Notes under the pieces: model-generated | Told to the model about the DNA's origin: nothing | What the model saw: only the letters and a program-made list of their open reading frames with translations | The model's database searches: none | In this document: positions 1 through 64,000 of the stretch, in pieces | Position numbering within the stretch: the first letter of the stretch is position 1 | Layout: each line of letters starts with the position of its first letter | From: Odiellus spinosus | Taxonomy: Eukaryota; Arthropoda; Arachnida; Opiliones; Phalangiidae | Length of the DNA stretch: 64,000 nt | Direction: 5' to 3' | NCBI GenBank assembly: GCA_963920705.1 | Contig: CAWUCO010000219.1 | Span: forward strand, 806,001 to 870,000 | Translations under genes and position numbers: made by a program

Positions 1-19
1 CTATACATGGGAAATTTTT

Positions 20-821
20 GGATCTATTCTTGGGGAATTTTTGGATCTATACTTGGGAAATTTTTCGATCTATACTTGGGAAATTTTTCGATCTATACTT
101 GGGAAATTTTTGGATGTATATTTGGGAAATTTGTGGATCTATACTTGGGAAATTTTTCGATCTATACTTGGGAAATTTTTGGATCTATACTTGGGAAATT
201 TTTGGATCTATACTTGGGAAATTTTTCGTACTATACTTGGGAAATTTTTCGATCTATACTTGGGAATTTTTTGGATCTATACTTGGGAAATTTTTGGATC
301 TATACTTGGGAAATTTTTGGATATATACTTGGGAAATTTTTCGATCTATACTTGGGAAATTTTAGGATCTATACTTGGGAAATTTTTGGATCTATACTTG
401 GGAAATTTTTGGATCTCTACTTGGGAAATTTTTAATCTCTATTTGGGAAATTTTTGAATCTCTACTTGGGAAATTTTTGAATCTCTAATTGGGAAATTTT
501 TGAATCTCTACTTGGGAAATTTTTGAATCGCTACATGGGAAATTTTTGAATCTCTACTTGGGAAATTTTTGATTCTCTACTTGGGAAATTTTTGAATCTC
601 TACTTAGGAAATTTTAATCTCTACTTGGGAAATTTTTGGATCTATACTTGGGAAATTTTGGGATCTATACTTGGGAAATTTTTGGATCTATACTTGGGAA
701 ATTTTTGGATGTATACTTGTGAAATTTTTGGATCTATACTTGGGAAATTTTTGGATCTATTCATGGGAAATTTTTGGATCTATACTTGGGAAATTTTTCG
801 TACTATACATGGGAAATTTTT
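20..821 (+). repeat. Domain A copy 1 (802 bp, 35 monomers)
   Basis: Full unit from GGATCTATTCTTGGGG to the end of the CGTACTATACATGGG monomer. Its three 22-bp monomers begin at 434, 594 and 616 and explain why the unit is 802 rather than 805 bp. Copy 3 is almost the same, with one visible private change (GGGATATTTTT near 1316 in copy 3). Confidence 0.92.
411..637 (+). repeat. Run of ten CTCTAC-type monomers
   Basis: Ten consecutive monomers carry CTCTAC or CGCTAC instead of CTATAC, mostly with GAATCT at the start (GAATCGCTACATGGG and GATTCTCTAC are single variants). The run includes three 22-bp monomers. It recurs intact at 983-1209 and 1785-2011. Elsewhere I see CTCTAC only as doublets from about 32.46 kb onward. 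Either this is a young local amplification or the doublets in domain E are its remnants. Confidence 0.9.
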
Positions 822-1393
822 GGATCTATTCTTGGGGAATTTTTGGATCTATACTTGGGAAATTTTTGGATCTATACTTGGGAAATTTTTGGATATATAC
901 TTGGGAAATTTTTCGATCTATACTTGGGAAATTTTAGGATCTATACTTGGGAAATTTTTGGATCTATACTTGGGAAATTTTTGGATCTCTACTTGGGAAA
1001 TTTTTAATCTCTATTTGGGAAATTTTTGAATCTCTACTTGGGAAATTTTTGAATCTCTAATTGGGAAATTTTTGAATCTCTACTTGGGAAATTTTTGAAT
1101 CGCTACATGGGAAATTTTTGAATCTCTACTTGGGAAATTTTTGATTCTCTACTTGGGAAATTTTTGAATCTCTACTTAGGAAATTTTAATCTCTACTTGG
1201 GAAATTTTTGGATCTATACTTGGGAAATTTTGGGATCTATACTTGGGAAATTTTTGGATCTATACTTGGGAAATTTTTGGATGTATACTTGTGAAATTTT
1301 TGGATCTATACTTGGGATATTTTTGGATCTATTCATGGGAAATTTTTGGATCTATACTTGGGAAATTTTTCGTACTATACATGGGAAATTTTT
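822..1393 (+). repeat. Domain A copy 2, shortened by exactly ten monomers (572 bp)
   Basis: The first two monomers and everything from the third-last G-type monomer before GGATATATAC onward match copies 1 and 3. The ten monomers equivalent to 66-295 of copy 1 are absent. The missing 230 bp is 10 x 23, so register is kept. This is the expected product of unequal exchange or replication slippage between misaligned monomers. Confidence 0.9.
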
Positions 1394-2195
1394 GGATCTA
1401 TTCTTGGGGAATTTTTGGATCTATACTTGGGAAATTTTTCGATCTATACTTGGGAAATTTTTCGATCTATACTTGGGAAATTTTTGGATGTATATTTGGG
1501 AAATTTGTGGATCTATACTTGGGAAATTTTTCGATCTATACTTGGGAAATTTTTGGATCTATACTTGGGAAATTTTTGGATCTATACTTGGGAAATTTTT
1601 CGTACTATACTTGGGAAATTTTTCGATCTATACTTGGGAATTTTTTGGATCTATACTTGGGAAATTTTTGGATCTATACTTGGGAAATTTTTGGATATAT
1701 ACTTGGGAAATTTTTCGATCTATACTTGGGAAATTTTAGGATCTATACTTGGGAAATTTTTGGATCTATACTTGGGAAATTTTTGGATCTCTACTTGGGA
1801 AATTTTTAATCTCTATTTGGGAAATTTTTGAATCTCTACTTGGGAAATTTTTGAATCTCTAATTGGGAAATTTTTGAATCTCTACTTGGGAAATTTTTGA
1901 ATCGCTACATGGGAAATTTTTGAATCTCTACTTGGGAAATTTTTGATTCTCTACTTGGGAAATTTTTGAATCTCTACTTAGGAAATTTTAATCTCTACTT
2001 GGGAAATTTTTGGATCTATACTTGGGAAATTTTGGGATCTATACTTGGGAAATTTTTGGATCTATACTTGGGAAATTTTTGGATGTATACTTGTGAAATT
2101 TTTGGATCTATACTTGGGAAATTTTTGGATCTATTCATGGGAAATTTTTGGATCTATACTTGGGAAATTTTTCGTACTATACATGGGAAATTTTT
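1394..2195 (+). repeat. Domain A copy 3 (802 bp, 35 monomers)
   Basis: Full-length copy with the same variant order as copy 1, including the paired CGATCT monomers, GGATGTATATTTGGG and the CTCTAC run at 1785-2011. Near identity to copy 1, 1.4 kb away, implies recent homogenisation. Confidence 0.91.
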
Positions 2196-2402
2196 GGATC
2201 TATTCTTGGGGAATTTTTGGATCTATACTTGGGAAATTTTTCGATCTATACTTGGGAAATTTTTCGATCTATACTTGGGAAATTTTTGGATGTATATTTG
2301 GGAAATTTGTGGATCTATACTTGGGAAATTTTTCGATCTATACTTGGGAAATTTTTCGATCTATACTTGGGAAATTTTTGGATCTATACTTGGGAAATTT
2401 TA
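2196..2402 (+). repeat. Domain A copy 4, partial; border with domain B
   Basis: The first seven monomers (GGATCTATTCTTGGGG, G, C, C, GGATGTATATTTGGG, G, C) match copy 1. The eighth, at 2357, is C-type instead of G-type. The AAATTTTA monomer that follows leads straight into the first CTAGGG monomer of the window at 2403. This is the left border of the B-type array. Confidence 0.8.
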
Positions 2403-4790
2403 GGATCTATACTAGGGAAATTTTTCGATCTATACTTGGAAAATTTTTCGATCTATGCTTGGGAAATTTTTGGATCTATACTTGGGAAATTTTTGAATCT
2501 ATACTTGGGAAATTTTTGGATCTATACTTGGGAAATTTTTGGATCTATACTTGGGAAATTTTTGGATCTATACTTGGGAAATTTTTGTATCTATTCTTGG
2601 GAAATTTTTGGATCTATACTTGGGAAATTTTTGGATCTATACTTGGGAAATTTTTGGATCTATACTTGGAAAATTTTTCGATCTATACTAGGGAAATTTT
2701 TCGATCTATGCTTGGGAAAATTTTGGATCTATTCATGGGAAATTTTTGGATCTATACTTGGGAAATTTTTTGTACTATACATGGGAAATTTTTGGATCTA
2801 TTCTTGGGAAATTTTTGAATCTATACTTGGTAAATTTTTGAATCTATACTTGGGAAATTTTTGGATCTATACTTGGGAAATTTTTCGATCTATACTTGGG
2901 AAATTTTTCGATCTATACTTGGGAAATTTTTTGATCTATACTTGGGAAATTTTGGATCTATACTTGGGAAATTTTTCGATCTATACTTGGAAAATTTTTC
3001 GATCTATGCTTGGGAAATTTTTGGATCTATACTTGGGAAATTTTTGGATTTATACTTGGGAAATTTTTGGATCTATACTTGGGAAATTTTTGGATCTATA
3101 CTAGGGAAATTTTTCGATCTATACTAGGGAAATTTTTGGATCTATACTTGGAAAATTTTTGAATCTATACTTGGGAAATTTTTGGATCTATACTTGGGAA
3201 ATTTTTCGATCTATACTTGGGAAATTTTTCGATCTATACTTGGGAAATTTTTGGATCTATACTTGGGAAATTTTTGGATCTATACTAGGGAAATTTTTCG
3301 ATCTATACTTGGAAAATTTTTCGATCTATGCTTGGGAAATTTTTGGATCTATACTTGGGAAATTTTTGGATTTATACTTGGGAAATTTTTGGATCTATAC
3401 TTGGGAAATTTTTGGATCTATACTAGGGAAATTTTTCGATCTATACTAGGGAAATTTTTCGATCTATACTTGGGAAATTTTTGGATGTATACTTGGGAAA
3501 TTTGTGGATCTATACTTGGGAAATTTTTGGATCTATACTTGGGAAATTTTTGGATCTATACTTGGGAAATTTTTCGATCTATACTTGGGAAATTTTTGGA
3601 TCTATACTTGGGAAATTTTTGGATCTATACTAGGGAAATTTTTCGATCTATACTTGGAAAATTTTTCGATCTATGCTTGGGAAATTTTTGGATCTATACT
3701 TGGGAAATTTTTGGATCTATACTTGGGAAATTTTTGGATCTATACTTGGGAAATTTTTGGATCTATACTTGGGAAATTTTTGGATCTATACTTGGGAAAT
3801 TTTTGTATCTATTCTTGGGAAATTTTTGGATCTATACTTGGGAAATTTTTGGATCTATACTTGGGAAATTTTTGGATCTATACTTGGAAAATTTTTCGAT
3901 CTATACTAGGGAAATTTTTCGATCTATGCTTGGGAAATTTTTAGATCTATTCATGGGAAATTTTTGGATCTATACTTGGGAAATTTTTCATCTATACTTG
4001 GGAAATTTTTCGATCTATACTAGGGAAATTTTTCGATCTATGCTTGGGAAATTTTTGGATCTATTCATGGGAAATTTTTGGATCTATACTTGGGAAATTT
4101 TGGATCTATACTTGGGAAATTTTTCGATCTATACTTGGAAAATTTTTCGATCTATGCTTGGGAAATTTTTGGATCTATACTAGGGAAATTTTTCGATCTA
4201 TACTAGGGAAATTTTTGGATCTATACTAGGGAAATTTTTCGATCTATACTAGGGAAATTTTTCGATCTATACTTGGGAAATTTTTGGATGTATACTTGGG
4301 AAATTTGTGGATCTATACTTGGGAAATTTTTCGATCTATACTTGGGAAATTTTTGGATCTATACTTGGGAAATTTTTCGATCTATACTTGGGAAATTTTT
4401 GGATCTATACTTGGGAAATTTTTGGATCTATACTAGGGAAATTTTTCGATCTATACTTGGAAAATTTTTCGATCTATGCTTGGGAAATTTTTGGATGTAT
4501 ACTTGGGAAATTTTTCGATCTATACTTGGGAAATTTTTCTATCTATACTTGGGAAATTTTTGGATCTATACTTGGAAAATTTTTGAATCTATACTTGGGA
4601 AATTTTTGGATCTATACTTGGGAAATTTTTCGATCTATACTTGGGAAATTTTTCGATCTATACTTGGGAAATTTTTTGATCTATACTTCGGAAATTTTGG
4701 ATCTATACTTGGGAAATTTTTCGATCTATTCTTGGAAAATTTTTCGATCTATGCTTGGGAAATTTTTGGATCTATACTTGGGAAATTTTT
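2403..4790 (+). repeat. Mixed transition zone between domains A and B
   Basis: No constant period over this stretch. It mixes domain-A-like members (GGATCTATTCATGGG near 2730, 3950 and 4065; GTACTATACATGGG near 2772) with the first CTAGGG, CTTGGAAAA, CGATCTATGC and GGATTTATAC monomers typical of B. A GTATCTATTCTTGGG marker occurs at 2587 and 3805 (offset 1,218). GGATTTATAC also appears near 3048 and 3368. An irregular zone fits an array border where homogenisation is weaker. No gene seen. Confidence 0.75.
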
Positions 4791-6420
4791 GGATTTATAC
4801 TTGGGAAATTTTTGGATCTATACTTGGGAAATTTTTGGATCTATACTAGGGAAATTTTTCGATCTATACTAGGGAAATTTTTCGATCTATACTTGGGAAA
4901 TTTTTGGATGTATACTTGGGAAATTTTTCGATCTATACTTGGGAAATTTTTGGATCTATACTTGGGAAATTTTTGGATCTATACTAGGGAAATTTTTCGA
5001 TCTATACTTGGAAAATTTTTCGATCTATGCTTGGGAAATTTTTGGATGTATACTTGGGAAATTTTTCGATCTATACTTGGGAAATTTTTCGATCTATACT
5101 TGGGAAATTTTTGGATCTATACTTGGAAAATTTTTGAATCTATACTTGGGAAATTTTTGGATCTATACTTGGGAAATTTTTCGATCTATACTTGGGAAAT
5201 TTTTCGATCTATACTTGGGAAATTTTTTGATCTATACTTGGGAAATTTTGGATCTATACTTGGGAAATTTTTCGATCTATACTTGGAAAATTTTTCGATC
5301 TATGCTTGGGAAATTTTTGGATCTATACTTGGGAAATTTTTGGATTTATACTTGGGAAATTTTTGGATCTATACTTGGGAAATTTTTGGATCTATACTAG
5401 GGAAATTTTTCGATCTATACTAGGGAAATTTTTCGATCTATACTTGGGAAATTTTTGGATGTATACTTGGGAAATTTTTGGATGTATACTTGGGAAATTT
5501 GTGGATCTATACTTGGGAAATTTTTCGATCTATACTTGGGAAATTTTTGGATCTATACTTGGGAAATTTTTCGATCTATACTTGGGAAATTTTTGGATCT
5601 ATACTTGGGAAATTTTTGGATCTATACTAGGGAAATTTTTCGATCTATACTTGGAAAATTTTTCGATCTATGCTTGGGAAATTTTTGGATCTATACTTGG
5701 GAAATTTTTGGATCTATACTTGGGAAATTTTTGGATCTATACTTGGGAAATTTTTCGATCTATACTTGGGAAATTTTTTGATCTATACTTGGGAAATTTT
5801 GGATCTATACTTGGGAAATTTTTCGATCTATACTTGGAAAATTTTTCGATCTATGCTTGGGAAATTTTTGGATCTATACTTGGGAAATTTTTGGATTTAT
5901 ACTTGGGAAATTTTTGGATCTATACTTGGGAAATTTTTGGATCTATACTAGGGAAATTTTTCGATCTATACTAGGGAAATTTTTCGATCTATACTTGGGA
6001 AATTTTTGGATGTATACTTGGGAAATTTTTGGATGTATACTTGGGAAATTTGTGGATCTATACTTGGGAAATTTTTCGATCTATACTTGGGAAATTTTTG
6101 GATCTATACTTGGGAAATTTTTCGATCTATACTTGGGAAATTTTTGGATCTATACTTGGGAAATTTTTGGATCTATACTAGGGAAATTTTTCGATCTATA
6201 CTTGGAAAATTTTTCGATCTATGCTTGGGAAATTTTTGGATCTATACTTGGGAAATTTTTCGATCTATACTTGGGAAATTTTTCGATCTATACTTGGGAA
6301 ATTTTTTGATCTATACTTGGGAAATTTTGGATCTATACTTGGGAAATTTTTCGATCTATTCTTGGAAAATTTTTCGATCTATGCTTGGGAAATTTTTGGA
6401 TCTATACTTGGGAAATTTTT
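4791..6420 (+). repeat. A-B-B' trimer 1 of the 551-bp repeat
   Basis: Unit A at 4791-5341, B at 5342-5892, B' at 5893-6420 (528 bp). Both B units here carry two GGATGTATAC monomers in a row (from about 5457 and 6008), the second followed by AAATTTGTGG; later B units carry one. The B' unit ends with CTATTCTTGGAAAA (near 6357), a marker seen just before each of the first four A units. Confidence 0.85.
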
Positions 6421-8096
6421 GGATTTATACTTGGGAAATTTTTGGATCTATACTTGGGAAATTTTTGGATCTATACTAGGGAAATTTTTCGATCTATACT
6501 AGGGAAATTTTTCGATCTATACTTGGGAAATTTTTGGATGTATACTTGGGAAATTTTTCGATCTATACTTGGGAAATTTTTGGATCTATACTTGGGAAAT
6601 TTTTGGATCTATACTAGGGAAATTTTTCGATCTATACTTGGAAAATTTTTCGATCTATGCTTGGGAAATTTTTGGATGTATACTTGGGAAATTTTTCGAT
6701 CTATACTTGGGAAATTTTTCGATCTATACTTGGGAAATTTTTGGATCTATACTTGGAAAATTTTTGAATCTATACTTGGGAAATTTTTGGATCTATACTT
6801 GGGAAATTTTTCGATCTATACTTGGGAAATTTTTCGATCTATACTTGGGAAATTTTTTGATCTATACTTGGGAAATTTTGGATCTATACTTGGGAAATTT
6901 TTCGATCTATACTTGGAAAATTTTTCGATCTATGCTTGGGAAATTTTTGGATCTATACTTGGGAAATTTTTGGATTTATACTTGGGAAATTTTTGGATCT
7001 ATACTTGGGAAATTTTTGGATCTATACTAGGGAAATTTTTCGATCTATACTAGGGAAATTTTTCGATCTATACTTGGGAAATTTTTGGATGTATACTTGG
7101 GAAATTTGTGGATCTATACTTGGGAAATTTTTCGATCTATACTTGGGAAATTTTTGGATCTATACTTGGGAAATTTTTCGATCTATACTTGGGAAATTTT
7201 TGGATCTATACTTGGGAAATTTTTGGATCTATACTAGGGAAATTTTTCGATCTATACTTGGAAAATTTTTCGATCTATGCTTGGGAAATTTTTGGATCTA
7301 TACTTGGGAAATTTTTGGATCTATACTTGGGAAATTTTTGGATCTATACTTGGGAAATTTTTCGATCTATACTTGGGAAATTTTTCGATCTATACTTGGG
7401 AAATTTTTTGATCTATACTTGGGAAATTTTGGATCTATACTTGGGAAATTTTTCGATCTATACTTGGAAAATTTTTCGATCTATGCTTGGGAAATTTTTG
7501 GATCTATACTTGGGAAATTTTTGGATTTATACTTGGGAAATTTTTGGATCTATACTTGGGAAATTTTTGGATCTATACTAGGGAAATTTTTCGATCTATA
7601 CTAGGGAAATTTTTCGATCTATACTTGGGAAATTTTTGGATGTATACTTGGGAAATTTGTGGATCTATACTTGGGAAATTTTTCGATCTATACTTGGGAA
7701 ATTTTTGGATCTATACTTGGGAAATTTTTCGATCTATACTTGGGAAATTTTTGGATCTATACTTGGGAAATTTTTGGATCTATACTTGGGAAATTTTTGG
7801 ATCTATACTAGGGAAATTTTTCGATCTATACTTGGAAAATTTTTCGATCTATGCTTGGGAAATTTTTGGATCTATACTTGGGAAATTTTTGGATCTATAC
7901 TTGGGAAATTTTTGGATCTATACTTGGGAAATTTTTCGATCTATACTTGGGAAATTTTTCGATCTATACTTGGGAAATTTTTTGATCTATACTTGGGAAA
8001 TTTTGGATCTATACTTGGGAAATTTTTCGATCTATTCTTGGAAAATTTTTCGATCTATGCTTGGGAAATTTTTGGATCTATACTTGGGAAATTTTT
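6421..8096 (+). repeat. A-B-B' trimer 2 of the 551-bp repeat
   Basis: Unit A at 6421-6971, B at 6972-7522, B' at 7523-8096. The B' unit is 574 bp, one monomer longer than usual, from an extra G-type monomer near 7770. It ends with the CTATTCTTGGAAAA marker near 8034. Confidence 0.85.
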
Positions 8097-9198
8097 GGAT
8101 TTATACTTGGGAAATTTTTGGATCTATACTTGGGAAATTTTTGGATCTATACTAGGGAAATTTTTCGATCTATACTAGGGAAATTTTTCGATCTATACTT
8201 GGGAAATTTTTGGATGTATACTTGGGAAATTTTTCGATCTATACTTGGGAAATTTTTGGATCTATACTTGGGAAATTTTCGGATCTATACTAGGGAAATT
8301 TTTCGATCTATACTTGGAAAATTTTTCGATCTATGCTTGGGAAATTTTTGGATGTATACTTGGGAAATTTTTCGATCTATACTTGGGAAATTTTTCGATC
8401 TATACTTGGGAAATTTTTGGATCTATACTTGGAAAATTTTTGAATCTATACTTGGGAAATTTTTGGATCTATACTTGGGAAATTTTTCGATCTATACTTG
8501 GGAAATTTTTCGATCTATACTTGGGAAATTTTTTGATCTATACTTGGGAAATTTTGGATCTATACTTGGGAAATTTTTCGATCTATACTTGGAAAATTTT
8601 TCGATCTATGCTTGGGAAATTTTTGGATCTATACTTGGGAAATTTTTGGATTTATACTTGGGAAATTTTTTGATCTATACTTGGGAAATTTTTGGATCTA
8701 TACTAGGGAAATTTTTCGATCTATACTAGGGAAATTTTTCGATCTATACTTGGGAAATTTTTGGATGTATACTTGGGAAATTTGTGGATCTATACTTGGG
8801 AAATTTTTCGATCTATACTTGGGAAATTTTTGGATCTATACTTGGGAAATTTTTCGATCTATACTTGGGAAATTTTTGGATCTATACTTGGGAAATTTTT
8901 GGATCTATACTAGGGAAATTTTTCGATCTATACTTGGAAAATTTTTCGATCTATGCTTGGGAAATTTTTGGATCTATACTTGGGAAATTTTTGGATCTAT
9001 ACTTGGGAAATTTTTGGATCTATACTTGGGAAATTTTTCAATCTATACTTGGGAAATTTTTCGATCTATACTTGGGAAATTTTTTGATCTATACTTGGGA
9101 AATTTTGGATCTATACTTGGGAAATTTTTCGATCTATACTTGGAAAATTTTTCGATCTATGCTTGGGAAATTTTTGGATCTATACTTGGGAAATTTTT
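8097..9198 (+). repeat. A-B dimer carrying private variants (copy 1 of an 1,859-bp-offset duplication)
   Basis: Unit A at 8097-8647 contains AAATTTTCGGATCT near 8276. Unit B at 8648-9198 contains a TGATCT monomer right after GGATTTATAC (near 8670) and a CAATCT monomer at 9039. The same three rare changes recur 1,859 bp downstream in 9956-11057 and not together elsewhere in domain B, so the two dimers share a recent common source. Confidence 0.88.
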
Positions 9199-9404
9199 GG
9201 ATTTATACTTGGAAAATTTTTCGATCTATGCTTGGGAAATTTTTCGATCTATACTTGGGAAATTTTTCGATCTATACTTGGGAAATTTTTTGATCTATAC
9301 TTGGGAAATTTTGGATCTATACTTGGGAAATTTTTCGATCTATACTTGGAAAATTTTTCGATCTATGCTTGGGAAATTTTTGGATCTATACTTGGGAAAT
9401 TTTT
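9199..9404 (+). repeat. 206-bp remnant of a 551-bp unit
   Basis: Nine monomers (9 x 23 minus 1) lie between two GGATTTATAC markers. The GGATTTATAC monomer runs straight into a GGAAAA tail and then CGATCTATGC, so the junction lies inside a monomer near 9211. A 345-bp (15-monomer) internal deletion of a normal unit would give this. Confidence 0.85.
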
Positions 9405-9955
9405 GGATTTATACTTGGGAAATTTTTGGATCTATACTTGGGAAATTTTTGGATCTATACTAGGGAAATTTTTCGATCTATACTAGGGAAATTTTTCGAT
9501 CTATACTTGGGAAATTTTTGGATGTATACTTGGGAAATTTGTGGATCTATACTTGGGAAATTTTTCGATCTATACTTGGGAAATTTTTGGATCTATACTT
9601 GGGAAATTTTTCGATCTATACTTGGGAAATTTTTGGATCTATACTTGGGAAATTTTTGGATCTATACTAGGGAAATTTTTCGATCTATACTTGGAAAATT
9701 TTTCGATCTATGCTTGGGAAATTTTTGGATCTATACTTGGGAAATTTTTGGATCTATACTTGGGAAATTTTTGGATCTATACTTGGGAAATTTTTCGATC
9801 TATACTTGGGAAATTTTTCGATCTATACTTGGGAAATTTTTTGATCTATACTTGGGAAATTTTGGATCTATACTTGGGAAATTTTTCGATCTATTCTTGG
9901 AAAATTTTTCGATCTATGCTTGGGAAATTTTTGGATCTATACTTGGGAAATTTTT

Positions 9956-11057
9956 GGATTTATACTTGGGAAATTTTTGGATCTATACTTGGGAAATTTT
10001 TGGATCTATACTAGGGAAATTTTTCGATCTATACTAGGGAAATTTTTCGATCTATACTTGGGAAATTTTTGGATGTATACTTGGGAAATTTTTCGATCTA
10101 TACTTGGGAAATTTTTGGATCTATACTTGGGAAATTTTCGGATCTATACTAGGGAAATTTTTCGATCTATACTTGGAAAATTTTTCGATCTATGCTTGGG
10201 AAATTTTTGGATGTATACTTGGGAAATTTTTCGATCTATACTTGGGAAATTTTTCGATCTATACTTGGGAAATTTTTGGATCTATACTTGGAAAATTTTT
10301 GAATCTATACTTGGGAAATTTTTGGATCTATACTTGGGAAATTTTTCGATCTATACTTGGGAAATTTTTCGATCTATACTTGGGAAATTTTTTGATCTAT
10401 ACTTGGGAAATTTTGGATCTATACTTGGGAAATTTTTCGATCTATACTTGGAAAATTTTTCGATCTATGCTTGGGAAATTTTTGGATCTATACTTGGGAA
10501 ATTTTTGGATTTATACTTGGGAAATTTTTTGATCTATACTTGGGAAATTTTTGGATCTATACTAGGGAAATTTTTCGATCTATACTAGGGAAATTTTTCG
10601 ATCTATACTTGGGAAATTTTTGGATGTATACTTGGGAAATTTGTGGATCTATACTTGGGAAATTTTTCGATCTATACTTGGGAAATTTTTGGATCTATAC
10701 TTGGGAAATTTTTCGATCTATACTTGGGAAATTTTTGGATCTATACTTGGGAAATTTTTGGATCTATACTAGGTAAATTTTTCGATCTATACTTGGAAAA
10801 TTTTTCGATCTATGCTTGGGAAATTTTTGGATCTATACTTGGGAAATTTTTGGATCTATACTTGGGAAATTTTTGGATCTATACTTGGGAAATTTTTCAA
10901 TCTATACTTGGGAAATTTTTCGATCTATACTTGGGAAATTTTTTGATCTATACTTGGGAAATTTTGGATCTATACTTGGGAAATTTTTCGATCTATACTT
11001 GGAAAATTTTTCGATCTATGCTTGGGAAATTTTTGGATCTATACTTGGGAAATTTTT
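9956..11057 (+). repeat. A-B dimer, copy 2 of the 1,859-bp-offset duplication
   Basis: Repeats the private variants of 8097-9198: AAATTTTCGGATCT near 10135, TGATCT after GGATTTATAC near 10529, and CAATCT at 10898. A private AGGTAAAT monomer near 10770 distinguishes it. It is followed directly by another A unit at 11058 with no B', breaking the trimer order. Confidence 0.87.
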
Positions 11058-11904
11058 GGATTTATACTTGGGAAATTTTTGGATCTATACTTGGGAAATT
11101 TTTGGATCTATACTAGGGAAATTTTTCGATCTATACTAGGGAAATTTTTCGATCTATACTTGGGAAATTTTTGGATGTATACTTGGGAAATTTTTCGATC
11201 TATACTTGGGAAATTTTTGGATCTATACTTGGGAAATTTTTGGATCTATACTAGGGAAATTTTTCGATCTATACTTGGAAAATTTTTCGATCTATGCTTG
11301 GGAAATTTTTGGATGTATACTTGGGAAATTTTTCGATCTATACTTGGGAAATTTTTCGATCTATACTTGGGAAATTTTTGGATCTATACTTGGAAAATTT
11401 TTGAATCTATACTTGGGAAATTTTTGGATCTATACTTGGGAAATTTTTCGATCTATACTTGGGAAATTTTTCGATCTATACTTGGGAAATTTTTTGATCT
11501 ATACTTGGGAAATTTTGGATCTATACTTGGGAAATTTTTCGATCTATACTTGGAAAATTTTTCGATCTATGCTTGGGAAATTTTTGGATCTATACTTGGG
11601 AAATTTTTGGATCTATACTAGGGAAATTTTTCGATCTATACTTGGAAAATTTTTCGATCTATGCTTGGGAAATTTTTGGATCTATACTTGGGAAATTTTT
11701 GGATCTATACTTGGGAAATTTTTGGATCTATACTTGAGAAATTTTTGGATCTATACTTGGGAAATTTTTGTATCTATTCTTGGGAAATTTTTGGATCTAT
11801 ACTTGGGAAATTTTTTGATCTATACTTGGGAAATTTTGGATCTATACTTGGGAAATTTTGGATCTATACTTGGGAAATTTTTCGATCTATACTTGGAAAA
11901 TTTT
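10745..11904 (+). repeat. Block duplicated at 15675-16834 (offset 4,930 bp)
   Basis: About 1.16 kb spanning the end of domain B and the start of domain C recurs 4,930 bp downstream. It includes CAATCT (10898 / 15828), GGATTTATAC (11058 / 15988), the A-type unit, the GAGAAATTTTT monomer (near 11735 / 16665), GTATCTATTCTTGGG and two successive 22-bp monomers. The copies part at about 11904 / 16834, where G-type replaces C-type. Confidence 0.85.
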
Positions 11905-12474
11905 TGGATCTATACTTGGGAAATTTTTGGATTTATACTTGGGAAATTTTTGGATCTATACTTGGGAAATTTTTGGATCTATACTTGGGAAATTTTTCGA
12001 TCTATACTTGGAAAATTTTTCGATCTATACTAGGGAAATTTTTCGATCTATACTTGGGAAATTTTTGGATCTATACTTGGGAAATTTTTGGATCTATACT
12101 TGGGAAATTTTTCGATCTATACTTGGGAAATTTTTGGATCTATTCTTGGGAAATTTTGGATCTATACTTGGGAAATTTTTGGATCTATACTTGGGAAATT
12201 TTTGGATCTATACTTGGGAAATTTTTGGATCTATACTTGGGAAATTTTTGGATCTATACTTGGGAAATTTTTTGTACTATACATGGGAAATTTTTGGATC
12301 TATTCTTGGTAAATTTTTCGATCAATACTTGGGAAATTTTTCGATCTATACTTGGAAAATTTTTGAATCTATACTTGGGAAATTTTTGGATCTATACTTG
12401 GGAAATTTTTCGATCTATACTTGGGAAATTTTTTGATCTATACTTGGGAAATTTTGGATCTATACTAGGGAAAT
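11905..12474 (+). repeat. Irregular domain C segment with the first GTACTATACATGGG cassette
   Basis: Satellite monomers only. Contains 22-bp monomers near 12155 and 12445, and the cassette GTACTATACATGGG (12274), then GGATCTATTCTTGGTAAAT and CGATCAATAC. Here the GAATCT member found between these in later cassettes is absent, so this copy is one monomer shorter. No other content. Confidence 0.75.
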
Positions 12475-15400
12475 TTTTCGATCTATACTTGGAAAATTTT
12501 TCGATCTATGCTTGGGAAATTTTTGGATCTATACTTGGGAAATTTTTGGATTTATACTTGGGAAATTTTTGGATCTATACTTGGGAAATTTTTGGATCTA
12601 TACTTGGGAAATTTTTGGATCTATACTTGGGAAATTTTTCGATCTATACTTGGGAAATTTTTGGATCTATAGTTGGAAAATTTTTGGATCTATACTTGGG
12701 AAATTTTTGGATCTATACTTGGAAAATTTTTCGATCTATACTAGGGAAATTTTTGGATCTATACTTGGGAAATTTTTGGATCTATACTTGGGAAATTTTT
12801 CGATCTATACTTGGAAAATTTTTCGATCTATACTAGGGAAATTTTTCGATCTATACTTGGGAAATTTTTGGATCTATACTTGGGAAATTTTTGGATCTAT
12901 ACTTGGGAAATTTTTCGATCTATACTTGGGAAATTTTTGGATCTATTCTTGGGAAATTTTGGATCTATACTTGGGAAATTTTTGGATCTATACTTGGGAA
13001 ATTTTTCGATCTATACTTGGGAAATTTTTGGATCTATACTAGGGAAATTTTTCGATCTATACTTGGAAAATTTTTCGATCTATGCTTGGGAAATTTTTGG
13101 ATCTATACTTGGGAAATTTTTGGATCTATACTTGGGAAATTTTTGGATCTATACTTGGGAAATTTTTCAATCTATACTTGGGAAATTTTTCGATCTATAC
13201 TTGGGAAATTTTTTGATCTATACTTGGGAAATTTTGGATCTATACTTGGGAAATTTTTCGATCTATACTTGGAAAATTTTTCGATCTATGCTTGGGAAAT
13301 TTTTGGATCTATACTTGGGAAATTTTTGGATTTATACTTGGGAAATTTTTGGATCTATACTTGGGAAATTTTTGGATCTATACTAGGGAAATTTTTCGAT
13401 CTATACTAGGGAAATTTTTCGATCTATACTTGGGAAATTTTTGGATGTATACTTGGGAAATTTTTCGATCTATACTTGGGAAATTTTTGGATCTATACTT
13501 GGGAAATTTTTGGATCTATACTAGGGAAATTTTTCGATCTATACTTGGAAAATTTTTCGATCTATGCTTGGGAAATTTTTGGATGTATACTTGGGAAATT
13601 TTTCGATCTATACTTGGGAAATTTTTCGATCTATACTTGGGAAATTTTTGGATCTATACTTGGAAAATTTTTGAATCTATACTTGGGAAATTTTTGGATC
13701 TATACTTGGGAAATTTTTCGATCTATACTTGGGAAATTTTTCGATCTATACTTGGGAAATTTTTTGATCTATACTTGGGAAATTTTGGATCTATACTTGG
13801 GAAATTTTTCGATCTATACTTGGAAAATTTTTCGATCTATGCTTGGGAAATTTTTGGATCTATACTTGGGAAATTTTTGGATCTATTCTTGGGAAATTTT
13901 GGATCTATACTTGGGAAATTTTTGGATCTATACTTGGGAAATTTTTCGATCTATACTTGGGAAATTTTTGGATCTATACTAGGGAAATTTTTCGATCTAT
14001 ACTTGGAAAATTTTTCGATCTATGCTTGGGAAATTTTTGGATCTATACTTGGGAAATTTTTGGATCTATACTTGGGAAATTTTTGGATCTATACTTGGGA
14101 AATTTTTCAATCTATACTTGGGAAATTTTTCGATCTATACTTGGGAAATTTTTTGATCTATACTTGGGAAATTTTGGATCTATACTTGGGAAATTTTTCG
14201 ATCTATACTTGGAAAATTTTTCGATCTATGCTTGGGAAATTTTTGGATCTATACTTGGGAAATTTTTGGATTTATACTTGGGAAATTTTTGGATCTATAC
14301 TTGGGAAATTTTTGGATCTATACTTGGGAAATTTTTGGATCTATACTTGGGAAATTTTTCGATCTATACTTGGGAAATTTTTGGATCTATAGTTGGAAAA
14401 TTTTTGGATCTATACTTGGGAAATTTTTGGATCTATACTTGGAAAATTTTTCGATCTATACTAGGGAAATTTTTGGATCTATACTTGGGAAATTTTTGGA
14501 TCTATACTTGGGAAATTTTTCGATCTATACTTGGAAAATTTTTCGATCTATACTAGGGAAATTTTTCGATCTATACTTGGGAAATTTTTGGATCTATACT
14601 TGGGAAATTTTTGGATCTATACTTGGGAAATTTTTCGATCTATACTTGGGAAATTTTTGGATCTATTCTTGGGAAATTTTGGATCTATACTTGGGAAATT
14701 TTTGGATCTATACTTGGGAAATTTTTCGATCTATACTTGGGAAATTTTTGGATCTATACTAGGGAAATTTTTCGATCTATACTTGGAAAATTTTTCGATC
14801 TATGCTTGGGAAATTTTTGGATCTATACTTGGGAAATTTTTGGATCTATACTTGGGAAATTTTTGGATCTATACTTGGGAAATTTTTCAATCTATACTTG
14901 GGAAATTTTTCGATCTATACTTGGGAAATTTTTTGATCTATACTTGGGAAATTTTGGATCTATACTTGGGAAATTTTTCGATCTATACTTGGAAAATTTT
15001 TCGATCTATGCTTGGGAAATTTTTGGATCTATACTTGGGAAATTTTTGGATTTATACTTGGGAAATTTTTGGATCTATACTTGGGAAATTTTTGGATCTA
15101 TACTAGGGAAATTTTTCGATCTATACTAGGGAAATTTTTCGATCTATACTTGGGAAATTTTTGGATGTATACTTGGGAAATTTTTCGATCTATACTTGGG
15201 AAATTTTTGGATCTATACTTGGGAAATTTTTGGATCTATACTAGGGAAATTTTTCGATCTATACTTGGAAAATTTTTCGATCTATGCTTGGGAAATTTTT
15301 GGATGTATACTTGGGAAATTTTTCGATCTATACTTGGGAAATTTTTCGATCTATACTTGGGAAATTTTTGGATCTATACTTGGAAAATTTTTGAATCTAT

Positions 15401-25806: not shown

Positions 25807-25844
25807 CGATCTATACTAGGGAAATTTTTCGATCTATACTTGGG

Positions 25845-49679: not shown

Positions 49680-51395
49680 TGGATCTATACTTGGGAAATT
49701 TTTGAATCTATACTTGGGAAATTTTTGGATCTATACTTGGGAAATTTTTTGATGTATACTTGGGAAATTTTTGGATCTATACTTGGGAAATTTTTCGATC
49801 TATACTTGGGAAATTTTTGGATCTTTACTTGGAAAATTTTTCGATCTATACTAGGGAAATTTTTGGATCTATACTTGGGAAATTTTTGGATCTATACTTG
49901 GGAAATTTTTGGATCTATACTTGGGAAATTTTTGGATCTATACTTGGGAAATTTTTGGATCTATACTTGGGAAATTTTTCGATCTATACTTGGGAAATTT
50001 TTGGATCTATACTTGGGAAATTTTGTATCTATACTTGGGAAATTTTTCGATCTATACTTGGAAAATTTTTCGATCTATGCTTGGGAAATTTTTGGATCTA
50101 TACTTGGGAAATTTTTGGATGTATACTTGTGAAATTTTTGGATCTATACTTGGGAAATTTTTGGATCTATACTTGGGAAATTTTTGGATCTATACTTGGG
50201 AAATTTTTGGATGTATACTTGGAAAATTTTTGGATCTATACTTGGGAAATTTTTGAATCTATACTTGGGAAATTTTTGGATCTATACTTGGGAAATTTTT
50301 GGATGTATACTTGGGAAATTTTTGGATCTATACTTGGGAAATTTTTCGATCTATACTTGGGAAATTTTGGATCTATACTTGGGAAATTTTTCGATCTATG
50401 CTTGGGAAATTTTTGGATCTATACTTGGGAAATTTTTGGATGTATACTTGTGAAATTTTTGGATCTATACTTGGGAAATTTTTGGATCTATACTTGGGAA
50501 ATTTTTGGATCTATTCATGGGAAATTTTTGGATTTATACTTGGGAAATTTTTCTTACTATACTTGGGAAATTTTTCGATCTATACTTGGGAAATTTTTCG
50601 ATCTATACTTGGAAAATTTTTGGATCTATACTTGGGAAATTTTTCGATCTATACTTGGGAAATTTTTCGATCTATACTTGGGAAATTTTTCGATCTATAC
50701 TTGGGAAATTTTTGAATCTCTACTTGGGAAATTTTTGAATCTCTACTTGGGAAATTTTTGGACTATACTTGGGAAATTTTTGTATCTATGCTTGGGAAAT
50801 TTTTGAATCTATACTTGGGAAATTTTTGGATCTATACTTGGGAAATTTTTGGATCTATACTTGGGAAATTTTTGGATGTATACTTGGAAAATTTTTGGAT
50901 CTATACTTGGGAAATTTTTGAATCTATACTTGGGAAATTTTTGGATCTATACTTGGGAAATTTTTGGATGTATACTTGGGAAATTTTTGGATCTATACTT
51001 GGGAAATTTTTCGATCTATACTTGGGAAATTTTTGGATCTTTACTTGGAAAATTTTTCGATCTATACTAGGGAAATTTTTGGATCTATACTTGGGAAATT
51101 TTTGGATCTATACTTGGGAAATTTTTGGATCTATACTTGGGAAATTTTTGGATCTATACTTGGGAAATTTTTCGATCTATACTTGGTAAATTTTTAGATC
51201 TATACTTGGGAAATTTTTGGATCTATACTTGGGAAATTTTGTATCTATACTTGGGAAATTTTTCGATCTATACTTGGAAAATTTTTCGATCTATGCTTGG
51301 GAAATTTTTGGATCTATACTTGGGAAATTTTTGGATGTATACTTGTGAAATTTTTGGATCTATACTTGGGAAATTTTTGGATCTATACTTGGGAA
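49680..51395 (+). repeat. 3,098-bp-offset duplication, copy 1
   Basis: Matches 52778-54493 at a constant 3,098 bp for about 1.7 kb. Landmarks: GGATCTTTAC followed by CTTGGAAAA and CTAGGG, a 22-bp GTATCTATAC monomer, CTTACTATAC, paired GAATCTCTAC, GGACTATAC at 50761 / 53859, and GTATCTATAC at 51241 / 54339. A private CTTGGTAAATTTTTAGATCT pair near 51186 marks copy 1. Confidence 0.88.
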
Positions 51396-51423
51396 ATTTT
51401 GGATCTATACTTGGGACATTTTT

Positions 51424-52164
51424 GGATGTATACTTGGAAAATTTTTGGATCTATACTTGGGAAATTTTTGAATCTATACTTGGGAAATTTTTGGATCTAT
51501 ACTTGGGAAATTTTTGGATGTATACTTGGGAAATTTTTGGATCTATACTTGGGAAATTTTTCGATCTATACTTGGGAAATTTTTGGATCTATACTTGGGA
51601 AATTTTGGATCTATACTTGGGAAATTTTTCGATCTATGCTTGGGAAATTTTTGAATCTATACTTGGGAAATTTTTGGATTTATACTTGGAAAATTTTTGG
51701 ATGTATACTTGGGAAATTTTTGGATATATACTTGGGAAATTTTTCGATCTATACTTGGGAAATTTTTGGATCTATACTTGGGAAATTTTTGGACCTATAC
51801 TTGGGAAATTTTTGAATCTATATCTGGGAAATTTTTGGATCTATACTTGGGAAATTTTTCGATCTATACTTGGAAAATTTTTCGATCTATGCTTGGGAAA
51901 TTTTTGGATCTATACTTGGGAAATTTTTGGATGTATACTTGTGAAATTTTTGGATCTATACTTGGGAAATTTTTGGATCTATACATGGGAAATTTTTGGA
52001 TCTATTCATGGGAAATTTTTGGATATATACTTGGGAAATTTTTCTTACTATACTTGGGAAATTTTTCGATCTATACTTGGGAAATTTTTGGATCTATACT
52101 TGGGAAATTTTTGGATCTATACTTGGGAAATTTTTGGATCTATACTTGGGAAATTTTTGGATCT
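51424..52164 (+). repeat. Block duplicated at 56588-57328 (offset 5,164 bp)
   Basis: 741 bp beginning at GGATGTATAC with CTTGGAAAA and running through GGATTTATAC, GGATATATAC, GGACCTATAC, GAATCTATATCTGGG (51823 / 56987), two CATGGG monomers in succession and CTTACTATAC. A related version is the spacer at 36.8-37.6 kb. Confidence 0.82.
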
Positions 52165-52283
52165 ATGCTTGGGAAATTTTTGGATCTATACTTGGGAAAT
52201 TTTTGGATGTATACTTGTGAAATTTTTGGATCTATACTTGGGAAATTTTTGGATCTATACTTGGGAAATTTTTCGTACTATAC

Positions 52284-52770
52284 TTGGGAAATTTTTGGAT
52301 CTATTCTTGGGAAATTTTTGGATCTATACTTGGGAAATTTTTTGATCTATACTTGGCAAATTTTTCGTACTATACTTGGGAAATTTTTCGATCTATACTT
52401 GGGAAATTTTTCGATCTATACTTGGAAAATTTTTCGATCTATACTTGGGAAATTTTTCGATCTATACTTGGGAAATTTTTCGATCTATACTTGGAAAATT
52501 TTTGGATCTATACTTGGGAAATTTTGGATCTATACTTGGGAAATTTTTCGATCTATACTTGGAAAATTTTTCGATCTATGCTTGGGAAATTTTTGGATCT
52601 ATACTTGGGAAATTTTTGGATTTATACTTGGGAAATTTTTGGATCTATACTTGGGAAATTTTTGGATCTATACTTGGGAAATTTTTGGATCTATACTTGG
52701 GAAATTTTTGGATCTATACTTGGGAAATTTTTGGATCGATTCTTGGGAAATTTTTGGATCTATAGTTGGG
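52284..52770 (+). repeat. CTTGGCAAAT segment shared with 40850-41290 and 57792-58280
   Basis: Offsets of 11,434 and 5,508 bp. Shares CGTACTATAC, CTATTCTTGGG, a TTTTTTGATCT monomer leading to CTTGGCAAAT, a second CGTACTATAC, a 22-bp monomer, CGATCTATGC, GGATTTATAC and a GGATCGATTC / CTATAG pair at the end. Confidence 0.8.
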
Positions 52771-52777
52771 AAATTTT

Positions 52778-54493
52778 TGGATCTATACTTGGGAAATTTT
52801 TGAATCTATACTTGGGAAATTTTTGGATCTATACTTGGGAAATTTTTGGATGTATACTTGGGAAATTTTTGGATCTATACTTGGGAAATTTTTCGATCTA
52901 TACTTGGGAAATTTTTGGATCTTTACTTGGAAAATTTTTCGATCTATACTAGGGAAATTTTTGGATCTATACTTGGGAAATTTTTGGATCTATACTTGGG
53001 AAATTTTTGGATCTATACTTGGGAAATTTTTGGATCTATACTTGGGAAATTTTTGGATCTATACTTGGGAAATTTTTCGATCTATACTTGGGAAATTTTT
53101 GGATCTATACTTGGGAAATTTTGTATCTATACTTGGGAAATTTTTCGATCTATACTTGGAAAATTTTTCGATCTATGCTTGGGAAATTTTTGGATCTATA
53201 CTTGGGAAATTTTTGGATGTATACTTGTGAAATTTTTGGATCTATACTTGGGAAATTTTTGGATCTATACTTGGGAAATTTTTGGATCTATACTTGGGAA
53301 ATTTTTGGATGTATACTTGGAAAATTTTTGGATCTATACTTGGGAAATTTTTGAATCTATACTTGGGAAATTTTTGGATCTATACTTGGGAAATTTTTGG
53401 ATGTATACTTGGGAAATTTTTGGATCTATACTTGGGAAATTTTTCGATCTATACTTGGGAAATTTTGGATCTATACTTGGGAAATTTTTCGATCTATGCT
53501 TGGGAAATTTTTGGATCTATACTTGGGAAATTTTTGGATGTATACTTGTGAAATTTTTGGATCTATACTTGGGAAATTTTTGGATCTATACTTGGGAAAT
53601 TTTTGGATCTATTCATGGGAAATTTTTGGATTTATACTTGGGAAATTTTTCTTACTATACTTGGGAAATTTTTCGATCTATACTTGGGAAATTTTTCGAT
53701 CTATACTTGGAAAATTTTTGGATCTATACTTGGGAAATTTTTCGATCTATACTTGGGAAATTTTTCGATCTATACTTGGGAAATTTTTCGATCTATACTT
53801 GGGAAATTTTTGAATCTCTACTTGGGAAATTTTTGAATCTCTACTTGGGAAATTTTTGGACTATACTTGGGAAATTTTTGTATCTATGCTTGGGAAATTT
53901 TTGAATCTATACTTGGGAAATTTTTGGATCTATACTTGGGAAATTTTTGGATCTATACTTGGGAAATTTTTGGATGTATACTTGGAAAATTTTTGGATCT
54001 ATACTTGGGAAATTTTTGAATCTATACTTGGGAAATTTTTGGATCTATACTTGGGAAATTTTTGGATGTATACTTGGGAAATTTTTGGATCTATACTTGG
54101 GAAATTTTTCGATCTATACTTGGGAAATTTTTGGATCTTTACTTGGAAAATTTTTCGATCTATACTAGGGAAATTTTTGGATCTATACTTGGGAAATTTT
54201 TGGATCTATACTTGGGAAATTTTTGGATCTATACTTGGGAAATTTTTGGATCTATACTTGGGAAATTTTTGGATCTATACTTGGGAAATTTTTCGATCTA
54301 TACTTGGGAAATTTTTGGATCTATACTTGGGAAATTTTGTATCTATACTTGGGAAATTTTTCGATCTATACTTGGAAAATTTTTCGATCTATGCTTGGGA
54401 AATTTTTGGATCTATACTTGGGAAATTTTTGGATGTATACTTGTGAAATTTTTGGATCTATACTTGGGAAATTTTTGGATCTATACTTGGGAA
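52778..54493 (+). repeat. 3,098-bp-offset duplication, copy 2
   Basis: Second copy of 49680-51395. Its right part (about 53730-54500) recurs again at about 55818-56588 with offset 2,088 bp, giving GTATCTATAC at 51241, 54339 and 56427. This segment therefore exists in at least three near-identical versions within 7 kb. Confidence 0.87.
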
Positions 54494-54842
54494 ATTTTTG
54501 GATCTATACTTGGGAAATTTATGGATGTATACTTGGAAAATTTTTGGATCTATACTTGGGAAATTTTTGAATCTATACTTGGGAAATTTTGTATCTATAC
54601 TTGGGAAATTTTTCGATCTATACTTGGAAAATTTTTCGATCTATGCTTGGGAAATTTTTGGATCTATACTTGGGAAATTTTTGGATGTATACTTGTGAAA
54701 TTTTTGGATCTATACTTGGGAAATTTTTGGATCTATACTTGGGAAATTTTTGGATCTATACTTGGGAAATTTTTGGATGTATACTTGGAAAATTTTTGGA
54801 TCTATACTTGGGAAATTTTTGAATCTATACTTGGGAAATTTT
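54339..54842 (+). repeat. 252-bp (11-monomer) tandem pair
   Basis: GTATCTATAC at 54339 and 54591 begins two direct copies of 252 bp (11 x 23 minus 1). Each holds C-type, CGATCTATGC, GGATGTATACTTGTG, GGATGTATAC with CTTGGAAAA, and GAATCT. The first has a private AAATTTATGGATG near 54520. This is the smallest clear recent duplication in domain E. Confidence 0.86.
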
Positions 54843-61500: not shown

Positions 61501-61749
61501 TTCGATCTATACTAGGGAAATTTTTCGATTTATACTTGGGAAATTTTTCGATCTATACTTGGGAAATTTTTGGATCTATACTTGGTAAATTTTTGGATCT
61601 ATACTTTGGAAATTTTTCGATCTATACTTGGGAAATTTTTCGATCTATACTTGGGAAATTTTTGGATCTATACTTAGGAAATTTTGGATCTATACTTGGG
61701 AAAATTTTCGATCTATACTTGGAAAATTTTTCGATCTATACTTGGGAAA

Positions 61750-63493
61750 TTTTTGGATCTATACTTGGGAAATTTTGGATCTATACTTGGGAAATTTTTC
61801 GATCTATACTTGGAAAATTTTTCGATCTATGCTTGGGAAATTTTTGGATCTATACTTGGGAAATTTTTGGATGTATACTTGTGAAATTTTTGGATCTATA
61901 CTTGGGAAATTTTTGGATCTATACTTGGGAAATTTTTGGATCTATTCATGGGAAATTTTTGGATTTATACTTGGGAAATTTTTCTTACTATACTTGGGAA
62001 ATTTTTCGATCTATACTTGGGAAATTTTTCGATCTATACTTGGAAAATTTTTGGATCTATACTTGGGAAATTTTTCGATCTATACTTGGGAAATTTTTCG
62101 ATCTATACTTGGGAAATTTTTCGATCTATACTTGGGAAATTTTTGAATCTCTACTTGGGAAATTTTTGAATCTCTACTTGGGAAATTTTTGGACTATACT
62201 TGGGAAATTTTTGGATCTATGCTTGGGAAATTTTTGAATCTATACTTGGGAAATTTTTGGATCTATACTTGGGAAATTTTTGGATCTATACTTGGGAAAT
62301 TTTTGGATCTATACTTGGGAAATTTTTGGATGTATACTTGGAAAATTTTTGGATCTATACTTGGGAAATTTTTGAATCTATACCTGGGAAATTTTTGGAT
62401 CTATACTTGGGAAATTTTTGGATGTATACTTGGGAAATTTTTGGATCTATACTTGGGAAATTTTTCGATCTATACTTGGGAAATTTTTGGATCTATACTT
62501 GGGAAATTTTTGAATCTATACTTGGGAAATTTTTGAATCTATACTTGGGAAATTTTTGGACCTATACTTGGGAAATTTTTGAATCTATACTTGGGAAATT
62601 TTTCGATCTATACTTGGGAAATTTTTGGATCTATACTTGGGAAATTTTGGATCTATACTTGGGAAATTTTTCGATCTATACTTGGAAAATTTTGCGATCT
62701 ATGCTTGGGAAATTTTTGGATCTATACTTGGGAAATTTTTGGATGTATACTTGTGAAATTTTTGGATCTATACTTGGGAAATTTTTGGATCTATACTTGG
62801 GAAATTTTTGGATCTATTCATGGGAAATTTTTGGATTTATACTTGGGAAATTTTTCTTACTATACTTGGGAAATTTTTCGATCTATACTTGGGAAATTTT
62901 TCGATCTATACTTGGAAAATTTTTGGATCTATACTTGGGAAATTTTTCGATCTATACTTGGGAAATTTTTCGATCTATACTTGGGAAATTTTTCGATCTA
63001 TACTTGGGAAATTTTTGAATCTCTACTTGGGAAATTTTTGAATCTCTACTTGGGAAATTTTTGGACTATACTAGTAAAATTTTTGGATCTATGCTTGGGA
63101 AATTTTTGAATCTATACTTGGGAAATTTTTGGATCTATACTTGGGAAATTTTTGGATCTATACTTGGGAAATTTTTGGATCTATACTTGGGAAATTTTTG
63201 GATGTATACTTGGAAAATTTTTGGATCTATACTTGGGAAGTTTTTGAATCTATACTTGGGAAATTTTTGGATCTATACTTGGGAAATTTTTGGATGTATA
63301 CTTGGGAAATTTTTGGATCTATACTTGGGAAATTTTTGGATCTATACTTGGGAAATTTTTCGATCTATACTTGGGAAATTTTTGAATCTATACTTGGGAA
63401 ATTTTTGAATCTATACTTGGGAAATTTTTGGACCTATACTTGGGAAATTTTTGAATCTATACTTGGGAAATTTTTCGATCTATACTTGGGAAT
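61750..63493 (+). repeat. 872-bp (38-monomer) tandem pair
   Basis: 61750-62621 and 62622-63493 match at a constant 872 bp: the 22-bp monomer at 61777 / 62649, GGATGTATACTTGTG, GGATCTATTCATGGG, CTTACTATAC, paired GAATCTCTAC, GGACTATAC at 62192 / 63064 and GGACCTATAC near 62558 / 63430. Copy 2 has CTAGTAAAAT where copy 1 has CTTGGGAAAT near 62200 / 63072. Confidence 0.88.
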
Positions 63494-64000
63494 TTTTTCG
63501 ATCTATACTTGGGAAATTTTTGGATCTATACTTGGGAAATTTTTGGATCCATACTTAGGAAATATTTGGATCTATACTTGGGAAATTTTTTATCTATACT
63601 TGGGAAATTTTGGATCTATACTTGGGAAATTTTTCGATCTATACTTGGAAAATTTTGGATCTATACTTGGAAAATTTTTCGATCTATACTAGGGAAATTT
63701 TTGGATGTATACTTGTGAAATTTTTAGATCTATACTTGGGAAATTTTTGGATCTATACTTGGGAAATTTTGGATCTATACTTGGGAAATTTTTCGATCTA
63801 TACTTGGAAAATTTTTCGATCTATGCTTGTGAAATTTTTGGATCTACACTTGGGAAATTTTTCGATCTATACTTGGGAAATTTTTGGATCTATACTTGGA
63901 AAATTTTTGGATCTATACTTGGAAAATTTTTGGATCTATACTTGGGAAATTTTTGGATCTATACTTGGGAAATTTTTGGATCTATACTTGGGAAATTTTG
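63494..64000 (+). repeat. Degenerate satellite tail of the window
   Basis: Still the same monomer, but with a high density of changes not seen or rare elsewhere: GGATCCATAC at 63545, CTTAGGAAATATTTGG, a 22-bp TTTTTTATCTATAC monomer near 63584, GGAAAATTTTGGATCT near 63650, TTTTTAGATCT near 63722 and GGATCTACAC near 63840. It ends mid-array. This may be the approach to an array edge or just a less homogenised segment. Confidence 0.7.

What the first reader, a model, noticed from the sequence alone, without database searches (positions are those of the whole stretch)
1..64000. Three nested levels of tandem order in one 64-kb satellite
Seen directly: 23-bp monomers form higher-order repeats of 802, 551, 1,720, 1,008, 779, 688, 985 and 872 bp, and these sit inside superunits recurring at 3.1-4.7 kb. 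Multi-level hierarchy is well known for human alpha satellite (171-bp monomers). Here it is built on a far shorter unit, with five distinct families side by side. Whether this satellite is already described I cannot tell.
Basis: partly seen in the sequence, partly recalled or inferred. Interest (0 to 1): 0.7.

Follow-up and report, generated by a model that had tools for sequence, protein, structure and literature searches.

The report
Harvestman 23-bp satellite, patchwork of duplications
This is a long block of a 23-base repeat in the genome of the harvestman Odiellus spinosus; its layered larger patterns are real, but they look like ordinary leftovers of repeated copying of neighbouring stretches rather than a special design.

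Summary
The window is unbroken 23-bp satellite from an unplaced 1.868-Mb scaffold of the harvestman Odiellus spinosus, identified by an exact scaffold length. It splits into 2,789 monomers of 133 kinds. Blocks of monomers recur far beyond permuted and Markov controls, so the multi-level order is real. It is not canonical higher-order repeat (HOR) structure: all 16 tandem rows found have 1.92-2.15 copies. The copies are mostly 99-100% identical, against 92.5% for random in-phase blocks. Only the 551-bp phrase forms a longer, diverged series. 985 bp is not tandem, and one of five tested superunits (3,696 bp) has a full adjacent copy at score 0.9. "Five families" depends on the cut-off. A neutral model of random in-register duplication and deletion reproduces every statistic compared at one mutation setting. 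The family has about 1.09 million monomers, 25 Mb or 5.6% of the assembly, and was seen on 7 of 16 chromosome scaffolds. It is probably pericentromeric or centromeric heterochromatin; that is untested. I rate it a new member of a known kind. My searches of the paper library showed no earlier Opiliones satellite.

The parts
1..64000 (+). 23-bp satellite array, consensus CTATACTTGGGAAATTTTTGGAT, one orientation, no insertion
1..2337 (+). 802-bp unit alternating with a 572-bp form; composite 1,374 bp (1-848 = 1,375-2,222 at 100%). Belongs to a phrase found 10 times in the genome, all in C216:779,032-808,223
4290..16680 (+). Domain of the diverged 551-bp (24-monomer) phrase: 18 copies at score >=0.5, 5 at >=0.7
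12392..16542 (+). 1,720-bp tandem duplication (12,392-14,111 and 14,112-15,831, 99.9%), itself a composite of 940 + 780 bp; 940-bp tandem duplication 14,640-16,519 (100%)
16520..22734 (+). Block 16,520-18,263 recurs 4,471 bp on at 20,991-22,734 (99.9%); as a full superunit the second copy is only 0.58
18952..21998 (+). Tandem duplications of 779 bp (99.6%) and 1,008 bp (99.8%)
34101..40223 (+). Partial superunit duplication, shift about 3.4 kb (34,239-36,049 and 37,633-39,443, 99.8%)
38480..39855 (+). 688-bp tandem duplication (99.3%); the same phrase occurs 14 times over 32-63 kb
42064..49432 (+). The one full superunit tandem duplication, 3,696 bp; each copy carries the same 321-bp duplication (that inner one is below the Markov maximum)
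49685..54572 (+). Block 49,685-51,473 recurs 3,098 bp on at 52,783-54,572 (99.7%); not a full tandem unit
61736..63479 (+). 872-bp tandem duplication (99.1%)

Best explanation
A heterochromatic satellite of the harvestman Odiellus spinosus, built on a 23-bp monomer, whose nested periodicities are the history of repeated in-register tandem duplications and deletions of blocks from a few monomers up to about 200 monomers (4.6 kb). Each event doubles a neighbouring block, later events double blocks that already contain duplications, and deletions and point mutations erode the rest, leaving a patchwork of mostly two-copy repeats with no dominating unit. Shown: the patchwork, its register, the high identity of the copies, the local restriction of one phrase, the abundance and the scaffold positions. 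Inferred: that the copying process is unequal exchange or a similar recombination (break-induced replication, gene conversion), that it is neutral, and that the array lies in pericentromeric or centromeric heterochromatin.
For: All 16 tandem rows have 1.92-2.15 copies, and 13 of 14 compared pairs are 99.0-100% identical against a mean of 92.5% (maximum 94.3%) for 40 random in-phase pairs. Phase is kept over 64 kb: 6 of 2,789 monomers are neither 22 nor 23 bp. Composite units add up: 802 + 572 = 1,374 and 940 + 780 = 1,720. A 159-bp phrase from the window occurs 10 times in the genome, all within 29 kb, as local copying predicts. A duplication/deletion/mutation simulation at 0.6 mutations per event (10 replicates) spans every observed value: distinct monomers 143 (107-184) against 133; homozygosity 0.10 (0.03-0.26) against 0.144; windows with a copy 0.43 (0.26-0.55) against 0.52; tandem rows 12.9 (8-17) against 12; rows with >=2.5 copies 0.2 (0-1) against 0. 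Smith's unequal-crossover model predicts such periodicity without selection (passage of PMC8122249). For heterochromatin: about 1.09 million monomers, megabase arrays on several chromosome scaffolds, and centromeric heteropycnotic blocks in other Phalangiidae (passages of PMC5904373).
Against: Other simulation settings fit less well: 0.4 gives too few distinct monomers (69-111), 0.8 too low homozygosity (0.04-0.12); single runs with blocks up to 80 monomers or with 70% short slippage gave fewer copied windows (0.14, 0.30, 0.10). The model was tuned to the window, so the fit shows sufficiency, not that it happened. By a strict ungapped test only the two 321-bp rows, of 16 tandem rows, lie whole inside a larger duplication. 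Copying is not only local: a 400-bp query finds 99%-identical matches 150-370 kb away on C216 and 95% matches on C21. No Hi-C, CENP-A or FISH data could be examined.
Confidence: 0.75

Rival explanations
1. True higher-order repeat arrays like human alpha satellite: units of 551-1,720 bp amplified as units, perhaps with a centromere function.
For: Copies within pairs are 99-100% identical while random blocks are 92.5%. The 551-bp unit has 18 recognisable copies and the 688-bp phrase 14.
Against: No tandem row exceeds 2.15 copies. Window-wide only two offsets exceed the Markov maximum, and weakly. 985 is not tandem and most superunits are partial.
Confidence: 0.1
2. Assembly artefact: the hierarchy comes from collapsed or misjoined HiFi contigs in a repetitive region.
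For: C216 and C21 are exact multiples of 1,000 bp (1,868,000 and 355,000), as expected if the scaffolder broke them inside satellite (inference; the methods name YaHS). Coverage and reads could not be examined.
Against: Most duplications are below 5 kb, within the 12-20 kb fragments sequenced. Similar structure appears in 8 of 8 further 10-kb loci of C216, C21 and C16 (7-55% of windows copied, Markov 0%). Reported QV is 60.6.
Confidence: 0.07
3. Amplification by rolling-circle excision and reinsertion rather than exchange in place.
For: Would explain near-identical matches 150-370 kb apart and on another scaffold.
Against: A rolling circle should leave runs of many identical tandem copies; none was seen. 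The 10 copies of one phrase are confined to 29 kb.
Confidence: 0.08

Closest known systems
Ruminant (bovine 1.715 / cervid) satellite I
   Same: A short subrepeat (31 bp) organised into much longer repeat units, centromeric (passages of PMC7288315 and PMC2760882).
   Different: There the long unit is fixed (0.8-1 kb in deer) and is itself the satellite monomer; here no long unit dominates. No sequence comparison was made.
Bovine 1.706 satellite (23-bp prototype, 'patchwork' 2,350-bp units)
   Same: Recalled from memory: also derived from a 23-bp prototype, with segments of different variants. My library search did not return the original paper.
   Different: Recalled: a fixed 2,350-bp unit. 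Mammal; no homology is suggested and none was tested.
Human alpha-satellite cascading and local-nested HORs
   Same: Sub-blocks repeated inside larger units, and variant copies of different length (passages of PMC11157248 and PMC10053651).
   Different: 171-bp monomers and HOR arrays of many copies; here 23 bp and about two copies per unit.
Human satellites 2 and 3
   Same: Large heterochromatic arrays derived from a very short unit (CATTC), split into subfamilies localised to chromosomes (passages of PMC4022460).
   Different: 5-bp ancestor; unrelated sequence (no comparison made).

Membership tests
Satellite DNA | Long head-to-tail array of one unit, in many copies in the genome | tested here: met
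   Unbroken over 64 kb; 1,086,654 monomer matches at <=3 mismatches against 3 for the reversed pattern
Canonical higher-order repeat | Copies of the multimer far more alike than monomers within it | tested here: met
   13 of 14 compared pairs at 99.0-100% (985 bp: 97.3%), random in-phase blocks 92.5%
Canonical higher-order repeat | The multimer is repeated many times in tandem | tested here: not met
   16 of 16 tandem rows have 1.92-2.15 copies; 551 bp is the only longer series, 18 copies at >=0.5 but 5 at >=0.7
Nested (cascading / local-nested) HOR | Tandem sub-blocks inside a larger unit that is itself repeated | tested here: inconclusive
   802+572=1,374 and 940+780=1,720; but under a strict ungapped test only 2 of 16 rows (321 bp, score 29, below the Markov maximum) are nested whole
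Centromeric satellite | Found at the centromere of most chromosomes | tested here: inconclusive
   Arrays seen on 7 of 16 chromosome scaffolds; match lists are capped, so the other 9 are not excluded. Centromere positions of this species are not known to me
Centromeric satellite | Bound by CENP-A / CENH3 | not testable with these tools
   No ChIP data
CENP-B-box satellite | 17-bp CENP-B box | tested here: not met
   0 strict matches on either strand of the window (motif recalled, later seen in PMC7288315)
Ruminant satellite I type | Fixed kilobase unit made of short subrepeats | tested here: not met
   No dominating long offset

The most novel reading that the evidence does not exclude
The 23-bp family is the functional, CENP-A-bearing centromere DNA of most harvestman chromosomes, and duplication turns its phrases over so fast that each array carries a private barcode (one window phrase is confined to 29 kb of the genome), which would make it a minisatellite-length centromere in a monocentric arachnid.
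Probability: 0.3. Interest if true: 0.5.

Novelty: new member of a known kind. Interest (0 to 1): 0.3.

Why it matters
If the family is centromeric, it gives a first sequence handle on harvestman centromeres, a group where my paper searches showed chromosome-level cytology but no satellite sequence. It is also a clean test case: a short monomer makes each duplication readable as a string of variants, so satellite turnover can be fitted to a model and its rates compared between haplotypes or individuals. As a structure it is ordinary: nested periodicities of this kind are expected from unequal exchange.

Tried and rejected
Rejected: a regular HOR reading, five fixed families, and a CENP-B box. 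No RNA family reaches its gathering score in the window. No peak at 7 or 8 monomers (a nucleosome) is among the 25 best window-wide offsets. The guess that the host was a hemipteran (from COX1, in my own reasoning) was dropped when the scaffold lengths matched Odiellus spinosus. A search for the bovine 1.706 satellite gave no useful paper on its 23-bp unit. Not done: Repbase or Dfam comparison (not available), read coverage, other species.

Full report
IDENTITY. The window is C216:806,001-870,000 of a 443,074,358-bp, 286-contig assembly. Contig C1 has 35,433,943 bases, exactly the longest scaffold reported for Odiellus spinosus qqOdiSpin1.1, and the other chromosome lengths and the 16,074-bp mitochondrion agree with its table (PMC11503004, parts 1 and 2 of 4 read). 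The paper gives 443,687,896 bp in 310 scaffolds, so the held copy lacks about 0.6 Mb and 24 sequences; I cannot say why. The paper assigns 82.91% of the assembly to chromosomes; C216 is not among its 16 chromosome scaffolds.

THE ARRAY. The window is one array of a 23-bp unit. 133 monomer sequences occur; the commonest makes up 925 of 2,789. Variation is concentrated at a few positions, above all G/C at position 20 of the consensus as written (1,774 G, 945 C). Lengths other than 22 and 23 bp are found in 6 monomers, so the register holds throughout.

HIGHER LEVELS. I coded monomers by exact sequence and looked for recurring strings. In one search, 21% of 30-monomer windows matched another place at >=90%, against 0% in one permuted and one Markov control. 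In one search, with shorter windows and both directions, the figure is 50.5% against 0% in 3 Markov controls. In one search all 16 tandem rows have 1.92-2.15 copies; 12 exceed the Markov maximum of 42. Gapped alignment (capped at 120 rows, lowest 42, Markov tops 39-42) adds one full superunit, 42,064-45,759 against 45,760-49,432. End-to-end copies of 13 claimed units were counted. Base-level identity of 14 pairs is 99.0-100% for 13 and 97.3% for 985 bp; 40 random in-phase block pairs average 92.5%, maximum 94.3%.

THREE LEVELS. Composite units show at two places: 802 and 572 alternate (spacings 802, 572, 802) to give 1,374; 940 and 780 alternate to give 1,720, which is itself duplicated. A third case, 321 bp inside 3,696 bp, rests on an inner repeat that scores 29, below the Markov maximum. 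In a strict ungapped test only those two 321-bp rows of the 16 are nested whole. So 'three levels' is right in places and not a rule of the array.

FAMILIES. Clustering of 64 bins by shared rare three-monomer words gives 12, 8 or 3 groups at three cut-offs, with interleaved membership. Two broad domains, roughly 4-28 kb and 31-63 kb, share little.

BEYOND THE WINDOW. Eight further 10-kb loci (four on C216, two on C21, two on C16) show the same kind of patchwork, 7-55% of windows copied, Markov 0%. A 159-bp phrase of the window occurs 10 times in the genome, all at C216:779,032-808,223. Yet a 400-bp query finds 99% matches at C216:434, 642-644 and 655 kb, and 95% on C21, so spread is not only local. 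A monomer pattern allowing three mismatches has 752,408 forward and 334,246 reverse matches, reversed-pattern control 1 and 2, about 25 Mb or 5.6% of the assembly; the same pattern hits 2,625 times in the window for 2,789 monomers. A sister form ending in GTGGAT is commoner (21,106 exact dimers).

CHROMOSOMES. Arrays or matches were listed on chromosomes 2 (C2:27.09-27.9 Mb), 8 (C8:0.27-3.04 Mb and the scaffold start), 9 (C11 from 3.2 kb), 10 (C12 start and 3.0 Mb), 13 (C15 start), 14 (C16 start, to 0.38 Mb, and at 0.87 and 3.0 Mb) and 16 (C18 near 2.25 Mb, five listed matches). One single monomer was listed on chromosome 1. On five scaffolds (C8, C11, C12, C15, C16) the array lies at or close to the scaffold start; of these C11, C12 and C15 end in TTAGG telomere repeats and C8 and C16 do not. 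That fits arrays near a centromeric or broken scaffold end, but does not prove it.

MODEL. A simulation with equal tandem duplication and deletion of log-uniform blocks of 1-200 monomers and infinite-allele mutation, 8,000 events, was run 10 times at each of three mutation settings. At 0.6 mutations per event all five compared values lie within the simulated range. At 0.4 distinct monomers are too few, at 0.8 homozygosity is too low. Six exploratory single runs show that smaller blocks or dominant slippage give too few copied windows. The setting was tuned to these data, so this shows that no special mechanism is needed, not that it is the true history.

LITERATURE. 'Satellite DNA' with 'Opiliones' gave 3 papers, none on a harvestman satellite by title and abstract start; harvestmen with centromere and heterochromatin gave 8, cytology and reviews by title; a wider search gave 955, of which 20 were listed, none naming Odiellus or Phalangium. 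These do not prove absence. Passages only were seen of PMC5904373, PMC6115934, PMC12747268, PMC5615363, PMC11157248, PMC10053651, PMC7288315, PMC2760882, PMC4053949, PMC8122249 and PMC4022460. PMC4053949 takes the most abundant tandem repeat of a genome as the centromere candidate; I did not rank the tandem repeats of this genome.

VERDICT. It is a new satellite of a known kind, with structure expected from ordinary duplication and deletion. Its main value is as a candidate centromeric or pericentromeric satellite in a little-studied order.

Noticed in passing
L009 (C216:1-4000): A different satellite with a 194-bp period and a strong 9-mer of 1,746 bp (95% identity at that offset), closer to a canonical HOR than the window.
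   Followed up: partly
C216:240,727-250,334 (L039, L014): LTR retrotransposon inside the 23-bp array with two 380-bp LTR copies, both 100% identical to the query; gag zinc knuckle and aspartyl protease matches; related LTRs elsewhere in the genome (40 of 94 candidates scored). Suggests a recent insertion.
   Followed up: partly
C2:27.09-27.9 Mb: Satellite runs on the + strand at 27.09-27.51 Mb and on the - strand at 27.76-27.90 Mb, with non-satellite sequence sampled at 27.64 Mb: two opposed arrays.
   Followed up: no
ends of C1-C8 and C11-C18 (L075-L082, L085-L092): 12 of 16 chromosome scaffolds end in TTAGG telomere repeats; C14 and the small scaffold C10 begin with CCTAA.
   Followed up: no
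L082, L087, L071, L072: Other short tandem repeats at scaffold ends: 18 bp (C8 end), 14 bp (C13 end), 22 bp (C17 start), 14 bp (C18 start).
   Followed up: no
C17 (chromosome 15), L028-L034: Several COX1-like copies with stop codons, probably mitochondrial DNA in the nucleus, some repeated.
   Followed up: no
L022, L044 (C216:1.5 and 1.8 Mb): Stretches of the sister 23-bp form (GGAAAATTTGT) within the same scaffold; L044 shows a 1,497-bp offset at 87%.
   Followed up: no
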